From Anoxynatronum buryatiense (GTDB lineage Bacteria; Bacillota; Clostridia; Peptostreptococcales; Tindalliaceae), in NCBI RefSeq assembly GCF_900182905.1, contig NZ_FXUF01000006.1:124001-188000 (forward strand): a stretch of DNA of 64,000 nt. The letters are read 5' to 3'. The position numbers were made by a program, and so were the translations under genes. Below are positions 31,708 through 41,197 of the stretch, piece after piece (position 1 is the stretch's first letter; every line of letters begins with the position of its first letter). The notes under the pieces are model-generated. The model worked only from the letters and a program-made list of their open reading frames with translations, did not search any database and had not been told where the DNA came from.

Positions 31708-34128
31708 TTAGTTCTGTGCGGAAGAAACCTCAAAAGAAAGGCCGCGCTGCATGTCCCATGAACTGCTGGAAAAAGCGTCTTTGGCATGGACAACCAGGGT
31801 ATAAAAGCCTGGAACAGTGGGAGTCCAATTATAAAAGTTCTGAGACCCATAAGACTGAACTAAAACCCATGAACCAGTATCCTGGTTGTGAACATAGAAT
31901 CTGTAAAGCGGGTTTGAACTACCGCTTGATTGAGCGGTAAGAGCGATGGTTTGACCAAGAGACTGAGGACTTGGCAAATCACTGCTGAAGGACAGACTGG
32001 TCACCTTCTGTGCGGAAGAAACCTCAAAAGAAAGGCCGCGCTGCATGTCCCATGAACTGCTGGAAAAAGCGTCTTTGGCATGGACAACCAGGGTATAAAA
32101 GCCTGGAACAGTGGGAGTCCAATTATAAAAGTTCTGAGACCCATAAGACTGAACTAAAACCCATGAACCAGTATCCTGGTTGTGAACATAGAATCTGTAA
32201 AGCGGGTTTGAACTACCGCTTGATTGAGCGGTAAGAGCGATGGTTTGACCAAGAGACTGAGGACTTGGCAAATCACTGCTGAAGGACAGACTGGTCACTT
32301 GGGTTGGACTAGAGTTCTCAATTAAGGAATCAACTGAAGCTACAAAATTCACCAAGCCCCAGCCATACTCATTGTCTTTCCCTGCAGGGCCCAAATCAGT
32401 GGCTGTGGTTGTCAGGATGTTTTTGATTCCAGCCGGTGTTACAGAAGGATCCAGCCCTTTCAGCACTGCTGCCATGCCTGAAACAATGGGAGCGGAAAAG
32501 GAAGTGCCATTGGCAGTAGGGGTGCTGGTGGTGGTATAGGTGCTTCCAATGTCGGTGGTAACCATGCCGACGCCTGGGGCAACTAAATCAACGGTGCTGT
32601 TATAATTAGAAAAAGAAGCCCTGGTGTTGGCAGCATCATTGGAAGTGGCACCAACGTTAATGGCATTGGCATAGGCGGCTGGATAAACCAGGCTGGTGCT
32701 GTAAAAGTTTCCGGCAGCAGCGATTACGGTAACACCTGCAGCCACAGCATTGTTAATGGCGGTTTCTTCGGCAATAATCGCACCACCAGTGTTTCGACCC
32801 AAGCTCAGGTTGATGACATGAGCCCCTTGCTGAACGGCATAATCGATTGCCGCAATCATATGGACATTGGAGCCGTTGCCTGCATCATCCAACACTTTAA
32901 GAGGCAAAATGGAGACGGGCCAGGTATAGGCGACACCAGCCATGCCGGTGCTGTTGTTGGTGGAAGCGGCGATAATACCGGAAACCCGGGTGCCATGGCC
33001 ATGGCCGTCGGCGGGGTTAGAGGTGCTGTTAGTATAGTTGAAACCACCGGCAGCAATGCGACCGGTCAAATCGGGATGATTGGCTTGAACTCCGGTATCA
33101 AGAACAGCCACCTTCACAGGCGATAATGTGCGGCCGGAGGTGACAATGGTGGTCCAGGCTTCAGACGCTTTGACGCGTGGCAGGTACCACTGGGTTGCAT
33201 ATAACGGGTCGTTAACAGCCATAAGAGAAATCGGTTGGTTCTCTTCCACGGCAATGACATTGGGATTTAGTGCAAGGTCATCCATGAGGGTTTCACGGTC
33301 TTCGGAAGACTGTGGAATCACCAGGTCTGTATGGGATGAGATTTGCTGCAGACGTTCAATTTTATCAATGGCTTGGGCAGACATGAGACGCATTTGCCCC
33401 TGGGGACGGTCGTAGGTGACCAAAAGCCATTCGCTTTTGTCAGTGGAGGGCGGTCCCCGTGCTTCTTGCATGCGAAGCAACCCTTGAGCCGCGGGACCAT
33501 AAGGCTCCACCGGTATTTCCACCCAATCAGTCAGGTCTTTCAGTTCCACACCTTCCTCTGGAAGCCCGTCAACCTCTTCAAACCCATCTTTTTCTTCATC
33601 AGCTTCCGGGCTAACAGGCTCATCCTCACCAGAGGCCATTTCTTCTTCAACGTCTTCGGGCGCTGATGTTTCAGGCTGCTCATCTGGCATATCCATCGGT
33701 AATTCTTCAAGCATACCCGTTTCTGGGGTTTCGGGATCTGTACCTTCAACATCGTCTTCAACCTCACTGTCAGGAATGAAGCCATCCCATATCACCACAG
33801 CACCCAAACCACGAAGTGCTGTAGCCAAGGCATGGGTTTCTTCATTGGCTTGCAGCTGGTTTTTCTGTAGCAAAAAATCCAAGTCCAGCAACAGGTCTGG
33901 AAAGCTTTCCTCTTTTTCAAGCAATGTTTTCATCCATTGATTGAAATCATCAATGGTGGCAAATGCTGAAGCCTCAAAGGGTTCCAGCGGTTCATCCAAA
34001 GTAGTGGAAGTCGTGGCTGTATCCAAAGCATAGGCAATGGGGAGGGTGTTTACCCAAAAGGAATTGAAAAGCAAGAGAAAAGAAAGGAGTGCAGGAATCA
34101 GTTTATTTCGGTGAAGCATCATTTTCAT
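31708..34128 (-). CDS. Secreted subtilisin-like (S8) serine protease with duplicated C-terminal domain
   Basis: An 806-aa exported protease. A signal peptide covers about 1-35. An acidic Pro/Glu/Asp stretch lies at 120-195 and an I9-like propeptide at about 225-300. The catalytic triad is Asp344 ('VAVLDTGVQANHPDL'), His378 ('GHGHGTRVSG') and Ser543 ('NGTSFSAPIVSG'); Asn474 in 'AAGN' forms the oxyanion hole. Two identical 98-residue beta domains (611-708 and 709-806, 'VTSLSFSSDLPSPQSLGQ' start, 'NWTPTVPGFYTLVV' core) end the protein; they resemble Y_Y_Y-type modules of clostridial surface proteins. GGAGGG precedes the ATG. It is convergent with the nonulosonate operon and its codon and base use match the more G/C-rich flanks. 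Confidence 0.92.
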   Translation of the reverse strand: MKMMLHRNKLIPALLSFLLLFNSFWVNTLPIAYALDTATTSTTLDEPLEPFEASAFATIDDFNQWMKTLLEKEESFPDLLLDLDFLLQKNQLQANEETHALATALRGLGAVVIWDGFIPDSEVEDDVEGTDPETPETGMLEELPMDMPDEQPETSAPEDVEEEMASGEDEPVSPEADEEKDGFEEVDGLPEEGVELKDLTDWVEIPVEPYGPAAQGLLRMQEARGPPSTDKSEWLLVTYDRPQGQMRLMSAQAIDKIERLQQISSHTDLVIPQSSEDRETLMDDLALNPNVIAVEENQPISLMAVNDPLYATQWYLPRVKASEAWTTIVTSGRTLSPVKVAVLDTGVQANHPDLTGRIAAGGFNYTNSTSNPADGHGHGTRVSGIIAASTNNSTGMAGVAYTWPVSILPLKVLDDAGNGSNVHMIAAIDYAVQQGAHVINLSLGRNTGGAIIAEETAINNAVAAGVTVIAAAGNFYSTSLVYPAAYANAINVGATSNDAANTRASFSNYNSTVDLVAPGVGMVTTDIGSTYTTTSTPTANGTSFSAPIVSGMAAVLKGLDPSVTPAGIKNILTTTATDLGPAGKDNEYGWGLVNFVASVDSLIENSSPTQVTSLSFSSDLPSPQSLGQTIALTAQSSGSSNPLYRFYVHNQDTGSWVLVQSYGSQNFYNWTPTVPGFYTLVVHAKDAFSSSSWDMQRGLSFEVSSAQKVTSLSFSSDLPSPQSLGQTIALTAQSSGSSNPLYRFYVHNQDTGSWVLVQSYGSQNFYNWTPTVPGFYTLVVHAKDAFSSSSWDMQRGLSFEVSSAQN
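31712..32299. repeat. Tandem duplication, 2 x 294 bp, apparently exact
   Basis: Bases 31712-32005 and 32006-32299 read the same by eye over their whole length, including third codon positions. Each unit codes for one 98-residue domain at the protease C-terminus. Exact identity points to a very recent duplication or to gene conversion. Confidence 0.93.
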
Positions 34129-36292: not shown

Positions 36293-36307
36293 GGGACAAT
36301 AGGCGAT

Positions 36308-36351
36308 AAAAAACCAGGAGAACCGGAAATGGCCGGTACTCCTGGTTTTTT
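36308..36351 (+). terminator. Intrinsic terminator, copy C of a repeated module
   Basis: AAAAAACCAGGAG (36308-36320) pairs perfectly with CTCCTGGTTTTTT (36339-36351), with an inner ACCGG/CCGGT stem. The same hairpin appears near 39881 and 41141. Confidence 0.88.
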
Positions 36352-36430
36352 AAACTGACCGAGCAGGCCGGACAAATGCCCATCTGCCCATCTGCACATT
36401 GATGATCCCTTTGACATAAGCTGGAAAGAG

Positions 36431-36502
36431 AACTGGAAGGTCTACGTTGAGGAAGATTGGGTAGATCAGATGGCAGTGGAGCATAGAGAAGAAGAGGAGT
36501 AA
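36431..36502 (+). pseudogene. 3' fragment of a second copy of the 208-aa protein gene
   Basis: These 72 bases match 40957-41028, the end of the 208-aa gene, at about 65 positions by eye, in the same reading frame and ending at a stop (TAA instead of TAG). It codes for VYVEEDWVDQMAVEH and an acidic tail. Nothing upstream resembles the rest of the gene, so only the last 23 codons remain. Confidence 0.85.
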
Positions 36503-36627
36503 GTGAAATTGCATGATGATTTTCGAGAAATTTCTTCAATAAAATCTGAATTAAACTTCTTTAAAATGGTTATATTTACTTAAAAATACAAATTATTTGC
36601 ATTAATTATTGATTTTTGCATAAATTA

Positions 36628-36680: not shown

Positions 36681-38108
36681 ATGTTAGAAGAGGAATTGGT
36701 TCAATTAGTCAATAAAATTATTTCTCAGAAATGTGAAAAACAGCACATAGAAAGCAAGAAGGCGTTAGGTGGTACACCAACTAAACTTTATGATACGTTA
36801 TCCAGCTTTTCTAATCAGATTGGCGGCGGGATTATCATTTTTGGAGTTGATGAAGATGCTGGTTATGAGGTGGTAGGTGTTTATGATGCTCAAGACCTTC
36901 AAAAAAAAGTTGTGGAACAGTCTTTGCAAATGGAGCCGGTTGTTAGGCCATTGTTTACGGTGGCAACTGTAAAAGAGAAGATCGTCGTAAGTGCGGAGAT
37001 TTCAGAATGTGACATTTACGATAAGCCTTGCTTTTATAAAGGGGCAGGAAGGCTGCGGGGGTCTTTTGTTCGTGTTGGTGATTCTGATCAGCCAATGACA
37101 GAGTACGAAATTTACAGTTACGAAGCCTTTAAAAGAAGAATTCATGACGAACTTCGCACTGTTGATCGGGCAACCATGGCTTATTTGAAAAAAGACAACA
37201 TGACTGAATATCTATTAAAACTACGCAGACAAAAAAACAATCTTGCTAATCTTGAGGATCAACGAATACTCGAAACTCAAGGCATAAGTCAAGATGGTTT
37301 GCCAACTTTGGCAGGATTGATGCTTCTTGGTGAATACCCGCAAGAATTCTTTCCACAGCTAAGCGTCACTGCGATGGTGGTGCAAGGAAAAGAGATGGGG
37401 GATCTTGGTGATGATGGAGAACGATTTGTAGACAATAAACGAATCGAGGGCACCATATCTCAGATGCTTGAAAGTACATTGGCTTTTGTCCGAAGGAATA
37501 TGAAAGTCAAAACCATTGTTACAGAAGAGGGGATGCGGGCAGACAAACCAGAGTATCCCATTAAGGCAGTAAGGGAAATAATATTAAATGCACTGATTCA
37601 CAGAGATTATAGTGTCCATACAGAACGTTCGCCCATAAGGTTGGTCATGTATGAGGATAGATTGGAACTGGAGAACCCCGGGGGCCTGTATGGTAGAATA
37701 ACTGTCGATGATTTAGGGAAAGCAGCTGCAGATACAAGAAACCCGTACCTGGCAGGTGCATTGGAAATGATGATTGATACTGAGAATCGATTTTCTGGGA
37801 TTCCGACTGTTATCGCTGAGCTTAAAAAAGCTAATATGCCCGCTCCTATATTTATCGATCGGCGAGGTGCATTCAAGGTCATTTTCTATAAAAAGACAAT
37901 CGTTCAGGATAAAAGTGCTGATCTTGCACAGGAAATAATATCCTATTGCAGGACGCCAAGAACAAGAGAAGAGCTCGCTGAACAGTTTGAATTTGAAACA
38001 CCCAGCTATTTTATTAAAACCTATCTATATCCATTAATTCAGGCGGGAAAAATTAAAATGTCATTACCTGATAAACCAAAGAGTAAATATCAGAAATATT
38101 TTTCATGA
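36681..38108 (+). CDS. AlbA_2/Schlafen-type DNA-binding protein with HATPase-like domain
   Basis: A 475-aa 'putative DNA-binding' regulator. The N-terminal AlbA_2 domain (about 10-130) has 'ESKKALGG', 'SSFSNQIGGGIIIFGVDED' and 'GRLRGSFVRVGDSDQPMTEYE'. The central HATPase_c_4-like domain has 'REIILNALIHRDYSVHTERSP' and 'LELENPGGLYG'. A winged-helix tail follows ('TREELAEQF'). Such proteins often sit in accessory islands and beside toxin-antitoxin or phage genes, as here. AGAAGGAGGG precedes the ATG. The exact role is not known. Confidence 0.82.
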   Translation: MLEEELVQLVNKIISQKCEKQHIESKKALGGTPTKLYDTLSSFSNQIGGGIIIFGVDEDAGYEVVGVYDAQDLQKKVVEQSLQMEPVVRPLFTVATVKEKIVVSAEISECDIYDKPCFYKGAGRLRGSFVRVGDSDQPMTEYEIYSYEAFKRRIHDELRTVDRATMAYLKKDNMTEYLLKLRRQKNNLANLEDQRILETQGISQDGLPTLAGLMLLGEYPQEFFPQLSVTAMVVQGKEMGDLGDDGERFVDNKRIEGTISQMLESTLAFVRRNMKVKTIVTEEGMRADKPEYPIKAVREIILNALIHRDYSVHTERSPIRLVMYEDRLELENPGGLYGRITVDDLGKAAADTRNPYLAGALEMMIDTENRFSGIPTVIAELKKANMPAPIFIDRRGAFKVIFYKKTIVQDKSADLAQEIISYCRTPRTREELAEQFEFETPSYFIKTYLYPLIQAGKIKMSLPDKPKSKYQKYFS

Positions 38109-38226: not shown

Positions 38227-38254
38227 TTGAAAAAATGGTTAATTGACGTATAAT
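38227..38254 (+). promoter_or_regulatory. Putative promoter of the toxin-antitoxin operon
   Basis: TTGAAA (38227-38232), a 16-base spacer and a perfect TATAAT (38249-38254). It lies 31 bases before the TTG start of the toxin gene. Confidence 0.7.
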
Positions 38255-38284
38255 ATGGTTATACTATCGATAAGGAGTGTTCAT

Positions 38285-38711
38285 TTGAGCTCCAAAAATC
38301 CGAACCCTCAAAAATATATTAACTTCTCCCCGGACGACATAAAAACTTATCTGGATATGCTTAGAAAATGTGTTCTTGAAGGTAGCTATTCAATTGCCAG
38401 GAATGAGAACGGGCAGGAAAACATGGATTTCATTGAGAATTATAAGATTAGTTCGAAGAGAGAGAAAGAAATATTACTTGGTTTACAGTTTGATGATTTC
38501 TGCTACGCTGTTGAGAATGAGAAGCTTGATTACGCTCATGAGATTTTATATGTTTTTTTGCAAACAGCATGAACTGGACTTTTGGGGAGAACTTGAGAGT
38601 GTTGAGATATATATTAAAGTGAATATGATTGAAATGAGAAACGGAGATTCCAGAGCATTTGTTGTCTCATTTCATAAAAGAAATTTTGAAATGACGTACT
38701 TATTTAGATAG
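38285..38711 (+). pseudogene. MqsR-family toxin gene broken by a frameshift in a T7 run
   Basis: Read with one base removed at 38553-38559 (seven T), this gives a 141-aa MqsR-like ribonuclease toxin. Residues 1-90 come from the frame starting at TTG 38285 (AAGGAGTG upstream), with 'ILLGLQFDDFCYAVENEKL' and 'AHEILYVF'. The rest comes from the next frame, with 'WGELESVEIYIKVNMIE' and the family's 'VVSFHKRNFEMTYLF' end. As written, frame 1 stops at 38570-38572 and the essential beta-strand end is lost. It could be a mutation, a sequencing error or a slippery site. The antitoxin gene downstream is intact. Confidence 0.75.
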
Positions 38712-38716
38712 ATCAA

Positions 38717-38797
38717 GGTGGGTAATGGACTGCCATAGAAGAAAATGGGTAATGGACTGCCATAGAAGAAGGTGGGTAATGGACTGCCATAGAAGGA
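38717..38797 (+). repeat. Three 27-bp tandem repeats between toxin and antitoxin
   Basis: The unit GGTGGGTAATGGACTGCCAT plus AGAAGAA is repeated at 38717-38743, 38744-38770 and 38771-38797 with one to three differences. The end of copy 3 becomes GAAGGA and supplies the ribosome binding site for the antitoxin gene. Confidence 0.95.
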
Positions 38798-38807
38798 GGA
38801 GATCAAA

Positions 38808-39806
38808 ATGAAGGGATATTGTGAAAATTGCCGCGATATGGTTGACTACAGTATAAAGACAGTGAATAAGGAAAAAACAATTAAAGGAAAAACAATTCGT
38901 TATGTCGGTAAAGAAGCTTACTGTGAGGAGTGTAAAGAAGAAATTCTTGTGGCAGAAATCAGGGACTATAATTTAATGCAACTTGATGCTGCTTACAGAG
39001 AAGCCGAAGATTTGATTAAAGTGACAGATGTTGAGAGCATTTTAGAGAGGTATGGTATCGGGAAAAGGCCCTTGTCTTTGCTGCTGGGATGGGGGGAAGG
39101 AACATTAACGAGATACGTAGATGGCGATACGCCGTCAAAACCATACTCGGATATCCTGAATCGTATTCTTGTTGATAAGACGTATTACCGAGACTTGCTG
39201 GAGCAGAATAGGGAACGAATTTCTGAAGTAGCATATCGTAAAAGCATGACAGCTACTGAAAAAATCCCTGACCCTGAGGTAGAAGGGAATGAAATTAGTA
39301 AGCTTGAATCAGCAGTTAAATATATATTGATGGAGACATCAGAGATTACGCCTCTCGCTTTACAAAAATTATTGTACTTTACTCAGGGATTTAATAAAGC
39401 TTTTGCAGACACCTTTATGTTTGAGGAAGACTGCGAGGCTTGGGCACACGGGCCGGTTTATCGCGATGTGTATCATAAGTATAGAGGGTATGGGTATAAC
39501 CCTATTGAAGAAGGCCATTTATCTTATGAGAACATCAATTTGACAGATGATGAAAAAGAGCTGCTTGACCATATTGTTTTATACTTTGGCTGCTATAGCG
39601 GTACAATTCTTGAAAACATGACGCATTCAGAAGAACCTTGGCGAGTAGCCAGACGCGGCTTAGTGGACGGTGAAAGGTCTGAGAGAGTTATTGAAAAGCA
39701 GGACATTGGTGCTTATTTCATAAACGTTAAAGAAAAGTATAAGATGTTGAATCACACAGACATCAAAGACTATACGAAAGATTTGTTTAGTAAGCTCTAT
39801 GCATAG
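38808..39806 (+). CDS. Antitoxin: MqsA-like zinc/HTH part fused to a Panacea (SocA/DUF4065) domain
   Basis: A 332-aa predicted antitoxin. Residues 1-50 hold two CxxC pairs ('CENCRDMVDY', 'YCEECKEE'), a zinc-binding part. Residues about 68-130 form an XRE-like helix-turn-helix ('YGIGKRPLSLLLGWGEGTLTR'). Residues about 165-310 form the Panacea/DUF4065 domain ('ITPLALQKLLYFTQGFNKAF', 'CEAWAHGPVYRDVYHKYRGYG'). It should bind and silence the MqsR-like toxin encoded upstream and repress the promoter. GAAGGAGGAG precedes the ATG and lies in the last 27-bp repeat. Confidence 0.85.
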   Translation: MKGYCENCRDMVDYSIKTVNKEKTIKGKTIRYVGKEAYCEECKEEILVAEIRDYNLMQLDAAYREAEDLIKVTDVESILERYGIGKRPLSLLLGWGEGTLTRYVDGDTPSKPYSDILNRILVDKTYYRDLLEQNRERISEVAYRKSMTATEKIPDPEVEGNEISKLESAVKYILMETSEITPLALQKLLYFTQGFNKAFADTFMFEEDCEAWAHGPVYRDVYHKYRGYGYNPIEEGHLSYENINLTDDEKELLDHIVLYFGCYSGTILENMTHSEEPWRVARRGLVDGERSERVIEKQDIGAYFINVKEKYKMLNHTDIKDYTKDLFSKLYA

Positions 39807-39813
39807 AGGTGGA

Positions 39814-39938
39814 GTTAGAAATCTGAAGATCGGTAAAGGATGTCGTAAAGCGTAGTGAAGGTAGAAAGAAAGAGTGATCAAAAAACCAGGAGAACCGGAA
39901 ATAGTCGGTACGCCTGATTTTTTTAAACTGATGGAACA
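39814..39938 (+). repeat. Repeat module copy A, with terminator hairpin
   Basis: About 120 bases that align with 41075-41197 (TTAGAAATCT, GATCGGTAAAGGATGTCG, AAAGCGTAGTGAAGGTAGAA, then the CCAGG hairpin) with few differences. The hairpin at 39881-39924 and the T run likely end the antitoxin transcript. The rest of the gap to 40178 holds a promoter at 40090 and a second GACAC-containing copy at 40151, but no gene. Confidence 0.88.
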
Positions 39939-40475: not shown

Positions 40476-41028
40476 AGCTTCCCATACATACCTGGGTTAT
40501 GCCATTAAGCTAGACGGAGAATTAGATGGTGAGAAAACCGTTTTCTCCATCGGGATAGGTAAAGCTGCCCATGCGAAACATCAATTCAAAGTAAATGATA
40601 CTATCTCAGGTGAGTGTGTACCGGTACCGGATCTTGATATGGAGCCAGTTGAATATTATAAAGTTTCAAAACTGAAAGTTATCTCTACAGGAGAACAAGG
40701 CAGCAGTTCATCTCCATGGGAGCTGGTGCCGCCGGAGTTGGAAGTCTATAGAGAAAGAGGACACCGAAGACTGGCAGCCAGGACCTATGACACTAAGTGT
40801 AGTAGCTGCATGTGGGGCTGTAGAATGCCAGTTGAGATTATTGTCGATAACTGGAATCCGAGAGGCAAGAAGAAGCATCGATTTGAGACATTCTGCTATG
40901 GTCCTCTTAATTGTCAATTGTATAAGGCGGGTCCTAATCGCAAAGTGGAAGGCCGGAACGGGATGGTCTACGTTGAGGAAGATTGGGTAGATCAGATGGC
41001 AGTGGAGCATCGGGGAGAAGATGAGTAG
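40402..41028 (+). CDS. Unrecognised 208-aa cysteine-containing protein
   Basis: Residues 1-95 look beta-rich ('FTGTIISIQPRIRLARSFDE', 'FSIGIGKAAHAKHQFKVNDTI', perhaps an OB-like fold). Residues 120-190 carry a likely metal site: CxxC in 'TKCSSCMWGCRMPVEIIVDNW', then 'FETFCYGPLNC'. The tail is acidic. The preferred start is ATG 40402 after AAAAGGAGG; an ATG at 40372 precedes that site and is rejected. Repeat modules A and B lie on either side, and a fragment of another copy is at 36431. I do not know a function; the setting suggests an accessory, possibly mobile or defence-related, gene. Confidence 0.75.
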   Translation: MDKLAFTGTIISIQPRIRLARSFDEASHTYLGYAIKLDGELDGEKTVFSIGIGKAAHAKHQFKVNDTISGECVPVPDLDMEPVEYYKVSKLKVISTGEQGSSSSPWELVPPELEVYRERGHRRLAARTYDTKCSSCMWGCRMPVEIIVDNWNPRGKKKHRFETFCYGPLNCQLYKAGPNRKVEGRNGMVYVEEDWVDQMAVEHRGEDE

Positions 41029-41074
41029 GTTGCAGCAAAAGAAGGGTGGCAAAGTGGCGCAGGTAAGAGTTTGA

Positions 41075-41197
41075 ATTAGAAATCTAAAGATCGGTAAAGG
41101 ATGTCGCAAAGCGTAGTGAAGGTAGAAAGAATTGTGATCAAAAAACCAGGAGAACCGGAAATAGTTGTTACTCCTGGTTTTTAAATTGACCGAACAG
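41075..41197 (+). repeat. Repeat module copy B, with terminator hairpin
   Basis: Matches copy A at 39814. The hairpin AAAAACCAGGAG (41141-41152) with CTCCTGGTTTTT (41171-41182) likely ends transcription of the 208-aa gene. Confidence 0.9.

What the first reader, a model, noticed from the sequence alone, without database searches (positions are those of the whole stretch)
38285..38711. MqsR-like toxin frameshifted in a T7 tract next to an intact antitoxin
Two overlapping frames join to a complete MqsR-family protein if one T of the run at 38553-38559 is skipped. Options are a disarming mutation, a phase-variable switch, transcript slippage on U7, or a sequencing error. A slip-dependent toxin would be a new way to keep its level low.
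Basis: partly seen in the sequence, partly recalled or inferred. Interest (0 to 1): 0.62.

Follow-up and report, generated by a model that had tools for sequence, protein, structure and literature searches.

The report
Broken MqsR-like toxin, intact Panacea antitoxin
A bacterial self-poisoning gene of the MqsR kind has probably been switched off by a single extra letter in a run of T's while its protective partner gene stayed intact, which is an ordinary way for such gene pairs to decay and not evidence of a new control mechanism.

Summary
At 38285-38711 two overlapping frames carry the two parts of one toxin, and they part at a run of seven T (38553-38559). An intact antitoxin follows at 38808-39806. 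Close relatives carry the same operon with an unbroken toxin. The toxin matches no Pfam or NCBIfam model directly, but a model of an intact relative matches E. coli MqsR (3hi2_B) at Z 12.2 over all 97 residues, and a bridging relative passes the Pfam MqsR cut-off. The antitoxin is a zinc-finger/HTH/Panacea protein, so this is the published MqsR:PanA architecture. None of 40 relatives has more than six T at the site, and most have fewer than six. Other relatives have lost the toxin by different lesions elsewhere, with the antitoxin retained. The assembly shows no broken copy among 217 ABC and HATPase domains, which makes sequencing error unlikely but not excluded. The window also has R43G at a nearly invariant arginine. 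Best reading: a recent loss-of-function indel in a homopolymer, antitoxin kept. Slip-dependent or phase-variable expression is not supported. A low-level leak cannot be excluded, because E. coli RNA polymerase is reported to slip on runs from about seven T.

The parts
38227..38254 (+). promoter-like site of the operon (TTGAAA, 16 nt, TATAAT)
   Evidence: 11 of 12 consensus matches; the number of promoter-like sites in the region is at chance level, so this is a candidate only
38248..38264 (.). candidate operator: perfect 6-bp inverted repeat GTATAA-TATGG-TTATAC overlapping the -10
   Evidence: perfect in the window, L001, L005, L007 and L012, imperfect in other relatives; binding is inferred
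38272..38279 (+). ribosome-binding site AAGGAGTG of the toxin
   Evidence: sequence; conserved upstream of the UUG start in close relatives
38285..38572 (+). toxin, 5' piece: residues 1-91 of the toxin, then a few out-of-frame residues and TGA
38411..38413 (+). codon 43, Gly where relatives have Arg
   Evidence: Arg in 24 of 26 diverse relatives and all 21 of a closer set
38553..38559 (+). run of seven T at which the reading frame breaks
   Evidence: none of 40 relatives exceeds six T here
38556..38711 (+). toxin, 3' piece in the other frame, with the conserved Tyr109, Lys111, Ser128 and His130 positions
38719..38795 (+). 27-bp unit repeated 2.9 times between toxin stop and antitoxin; relatives have one copy
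38793..38799 (+). ribosome-binding site AAGGAGG of the antitoxin
   Evidence: sequence; present in relatives
38808..39806 (+). antitoxin: N-terminal zinc finger (CENC, CEEC), HTH, C-terminal Panacea domain; intact
   Evidence: PF13274 E 3.5e-19, over cut-off; TIGR03830 E 2.2e-14, under cut-off

Best explanation
This is a chromosomal toxin-antitoxin operon of the MqsR:PanA kind (toxin gene first, then a ZBD-HTH-Panacea antitoxin) whose toxin gene has recently been inactivated by a one-base indel in a T homopolymer. Shown: the frame break, the intact antitoxin, the unbroken toxins in relatives and their MqsR fold. Inferred: translation ends at 38572, giving a ~95-aa fragment without the conserved Tyr/Lys and Ser-Phe-His elements that form the MqsR-type RNase core, so the product is inert. 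The antitoxin is still made, because its own ribosome-binding site and the promoter region remain, and it probably still represses the operon as an orphan regulator.
For: Unbroken orthologues in the same operon order in close relatives. The T7 run is unique to the window: in 40 relatives the longest run at the site is two to six. About 7 of 54 relatives have a broken or missing toxin by different lesions (frame break near codon 62 in L006, near codon 100 in L011, in-frame stop in L048 and L064, N-terminal loss in L010, remnant or nothing in L013 and L014), and the antitoxin is intact in most of them. R43G at a nearly invariant position. No second copy of the toxin in the genome. The assembly is clean: all 217 ABC and HATPase domain copies are unbroken, the single flagged stop being a natural gene end.
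Against: There is no other stop or indel in either piece. Nonsynonymous:synonymous change on the window's branch is 11:8 against 0:15 for L001, but 9:12 for L002 and 19:25 for the window's own antitoxin, so relaxed selection is not demonstrated; the lesion must be recent or the gene still partly used. No reads could be inspected. Some lesions in relatives come from metagenome assemblies and could themselves be errors.
Confidence: 0.74

Rival explanations
1. Sequencing or assembly error: the real run is shorter and the toxin is intact.
For: Homopolymers are where such errors fall, and the two nearest relatives have an unbroken frame with six T here. Both pieces are otherwise free of stops.
Against: None of 217 domain copies across the genome is broken. 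In a 464-kb sample, 208 A/T runs of seven or more lie inside intact ORFs of 200 aa or more. True toxin loss is common in the family, about 7 of 54.
Confidence: 0.11
2. Leaky expression: RNA polymerase (or, less likely, the ribosome) slips on the U run, so a small share of transcripts encodes full-length toxin and the pair works at low dose.
For: In E. coli, slippage by the host polymerase becomes detectable at about seven T; rescue by insertion was 5% and 10% for T7/T8 and by deletion 10% for T8 (PMC6260861), and transcript sequencing gave 0.75% insertion at a T7 run (PMC6260861). Constraint on the toxin is not clearly lost.
Against: The site is not conserved in any relative. In E. coli transcripts, deletions within homopolymers, the direction needed here, are reported as rare (PMC5574713). 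Known functional slip sites such as the A11 of Citrobacter tssM1 are longer (PMC4256274). T7 runs are ordinary in genes of this genome. R43G would affect the slipped product too.
Confidence: 0.08
3. Phase-variable switch: the run changes length between cells and turns the toxin on and off.
For: A homopolymer indel inside the coding sequence is the right kind of site (sequence).
Against: Seven T is short for efficient slipped-strand switching (own knowledge). No relative has a longer run. No second strain of the species was available.
Confidence: 0.05
4. Split toxin: the frame break puts an ATG (38550-38552) in frame with the 3' piece, and two fragments reassemble.
For: The ATG is in frame with the 3' piece and overlaps the end of the 5' piece.
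Against: There is no evident ribosome-binding site in front of it, and the ATG is simply part of the Tyr-Val codons (TAT GTT) found in many relatives, so its presence is incidental.
Confidence: 0.02

Closest known systems
Bacillus fungorum MqsR_D2:PanA (PMC10440598)
   Same: MqsR-type RNase toxin paired with a ZBD-HTH-Panacea antitoxin
   Different: there the toxin is intact and shown to be toxic, and neutralised by the ZBD; here the toxin gene is broken and nothing has been tested
E. coli MqsRA (3hi2)
   Same: toxin fold (Z 12.2, rmsd 2.1, 97 of 97 residues, 16% identity) and toxin-first gene order
   Different: no Panacea domain in MqsA; the toxin here is about 40 residues longer and not recognised by the Pfam model
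PHROG 34059 and PHROG 10390
   Same: toxin and antitoxin families of this pair as met in phages
   Different: both are listed as of unknown function
Citrobacter rodentium tssM1 transcript slippage (PMC4256274)
   Same: an out-of-frame gene with a homopolymer near the break
   Different: A11 with about 20% measured frameshifting; here T7, not conserved, nothing measured

Membership tests
MqsR toxin | MqsR fold | tested here: met
   model of L001 (pLDDT 84) against 3hi2_B: Z 12.2, next best 5.4. Foldseek alone gave no match at E 0.001 or better
MqsR toxin | match to Pfam PF15723 at its cut-off | tested here: not met
   no hit for the window pieces or five close relatives. Bridging relative L061 passes (27.0 against 26.2 bits) and is homologous to this family (E 6.5e-21; 99.9% probability, but L061 is itself a row of that alignment). 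So: distant relative of MqsR, outside the Pfam family as drawn
MqsR toxin | conserved catalytic Tyr (Y97 in B. fungorum MqsR_D2) | tested here: inconclusive
   an invariant Tyr109 lies in the YIK motif of all 26 relatives, but the residue-by-residue match to Y97 was not computed. In the window it lies in the out-of-frame piece
MqsR toxin | mRNA cleavage and growth arrest | not testable with these tools
   needs expression
PanA antitoxin with MqsA-type N-terminus | Panacea domain PF13274 over cut-off | tested here: met
   70.2 against 25.7 bits
PanA antitoxin with MqsA-type N-terminus | zinc-binding CxxC pairs and MqsA-type HTH | tested here: inconclusive
   CENC and CEEC present; TIGR03830 53.3 against a cut-off of 61.8, E 2.2e-14
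PanA antitoxin with MqsA-type N-terminus | neutralises its cognate toxin | not testable with these tools
   needs co-expression
programmed transcriptional slippage | slip site conserved in orthologues | tested here: not met
   0 of 40 relatives with seven or more T; most have runs of two to five
homopolymer phase variation | run length varies between cells or strains | not testable with these tools
   no reads and no second strain; the two other genomes of the genus lack the locus

The most novel reading that the evidence does not exclude
A trickle of full-length toxin is made by polymerase slippage on U7, so an apparently dead toxin gene works as a low-dose toxin held safe by its antitoxin.
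Probability: 0.06. Interest if true: 0.6.

Novelty: new member of a known kind. Interest (0 to 1): 0.17.

Why it matters
As it stands it is a clean example of how MqsR:PanA pairs decay: the toxin goes first, by varied lesions, and the antitoxin stays. A by-product is that a family without Pfam or NCBIfam annotation (PHROG 34059), found in Clostridia and their phages, can be assigned the MqsR fold, which would let many 'hypothetical protein' partners of Panacea antitoxins be named.

Tried and rejected
Direct Pfam, NCBIfam and PADLOC scans of the toxin: no useful hit. Sequence search of solved structures with two profiles: only chance hits. First structure model from nine close sequences: poor (pLDDT 38), replaced by one from 21 sequences. 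Foldseek top hits were weak NTF2-like matches. Search for the same toxin in phage records: none. Conserved hairpin between toxin and antitoxin: looked plausible by eye but not supported, -1.25 kcal/mol and four pairs. Relaxed selection on the toxin: significant against L001 (p 0.0005), 0.02 against both relatives pooled, and not against the window's antitoxin (p 0.41), so not claimed. Frameshift survey by orthologues from a sister genome gave only 11 full-length pairs, and one split that reads as a large internal deletion, too few to use.

Full report
The feature is real. The window holds a UUG-initiated frame from 38285 that ends at 38572 and a second frame, open from the T run at 38553-38559 to the stop at 38709-38711. 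Used as separate queries, the two pieces hit the first and last parts of one unbroken 141-residue protein in L001 (88% and 92% identical), L002, L003 and more distant relatives. The joined protein was never built or handed to any tool; folds and profiles used unbroken relatives only.

What the toxin is. No Pfam or NCBIfam family recognises the window pieces or five close relatives. A wider set gathered from 394 genomes of the order and from viral contigs contains L061, which passes the Pfam MqsR cut-off and is found by the family's own profile at 6.5e-21. A model of L001 from 21 sequences (mean pLDDT 84) aligns with E. coli MqsR, 3hi2_B, at Z 12.2, rmsd 2.1, over all 97 MqsR residues, far above the next match at 5.4. 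Foldseek alone did not show this match among its listed top hits. PHROGs lists the family as 34059, unknown function.

What the antitoxin is. The 332-aa protein has two CxxC pairs, an MqsA-type region (TIGR03830, below cut-off) and a Panacea domain over cut-off. The same ZBD-HTH-Panacea architecture paired with an MqsR toxin was studied in Bacillus fungorum, where the zinc domain neutralises the toxin and replacement of the catalytic Tyr97 removes toxicity (PMC10440598). In the 52 relatives where both genes were found, the two lie close together, and the toxin precedes the antitoxin in every case but L053, whose toxin runs off the contig end before its own partner would appear. Upstream lie a promoter-like site and a perfect inverted repeat over its -10, kept in several relatives.

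Is the T run special? No. In 40 relatives the longest T run at the site is 2 to 6, and only five of them have six. In a 464-kb sample of the genome, 46 T7, 9 T8 and 1 T9 runs lie in intact ORFs of 200 aa or more. A homopolymer is the expected place for a spontaneous indel.

Is it a sequencing error? The assembly (4.16 Mb, 47 contigs, 99.8% complete) has 127 ABC and 90 HATPase domain matches, none truly interrupted: the one flagged stop is the natural end of its gene. That puts broken domains at roughly 1.4% or less (three in 217, rule of three), against about 7 of 54 relatives with a broken or missing toxin. A true lesion is therefore favoured, but only reads can settle it.

Decay or function? 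Lesions in relatives differ in kind and place: a frame break near codon 62 (L006), a frame break near codon 100 (L011), in-frame stops (L048, L064), loss of the N-terminal half (L010), and a remnant or nothing (L013, L014). L044 (possible N-terminal break) and L053 (contig end) are ambiguous. Retention of the antitoxin after toxin loss is what a toxin-antitoxin pair predicts. Because L001-L014 were found with the antitoxin as query, the asymmetry is partly built into that half of the sample; in the toxin-query half the antitoxin was also present. The window toxin carries R43G where 24 of 26 diverse relatives have Arg. Substitution counts do not prove relaxed selection (11 nonsynonymous to 8 synonymous, against 0:15 and 9:12 in two relatives and 19:25 in the window antitoxin), which fits a recent event.

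Could slippage make it a working toxin? In E. coli, slippage on T runs becomes detectable at about seven T, with rescue of a few percent (PMC6260861), while deletions within homopolymers, the direction needed here, are rare in transcripts (PMC5574713). A leak is possible, but nothing in the comparison shows that it is used. The organism lies in the same family as a Tindallia metagenome assembly: L001 coincides with G005, contig 55, by coordinates. The two other genomes of the genus lack the locus.

Verdict: an ordinary, recently disarmed MqsR:PanA pair, with a useful side result in naming the toxin family.

Noticed in passing
window 38719-38795: A 27-bp unit stands 2.9 times in tandem between toxin stop and antitoxin start; relatives have one copy.
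   Followed up: partly
window 31712-32298: A 294-bp stretch is duplicated in tandem with 100% identity, in frame (98 codons), at the C-terminal end of a subtilisin-like protease gene on the minus strand (31708-34128); very recent duplication or assembly artefact.
   Followed up: no
window 36302-36504 and 40956-41182: The stretch with the Schlafen/AlbA-type gene (36681-38108), the toxin-antitoxin pair and a 218-aa ORF is flanked by repeated segments: a 75-bp repeat at 91% (the right copy is the 3' end of the 218-aa ORF) and a 49-bp terminator-like repeat that also occurs at 39874; possible trace of an insertion or duplication.
   Followed up: partly
window 36681-38108: Schlafen AlbA_2 plus HATPase_c_4 protein with a Fic-like C-terminal domain lies just upstream of the pair; weak PADLOC hits to pAgo-type models probably reflect shared domains.
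   Followed up: no
L016 (own genome, C11:131093-131512, minus strand): A second, distant ZBD-HTH antitoxin-like gene (25% identity, 359-aa frame) stands elsewhere in the genome; no MqsR-family toxin was found beside it.
   Followed up: partly
L036-L039, L069-L083: The same toxin and antitoxin families occur on viral contigs, so the pair travels on prophages.
   Followed up: partly
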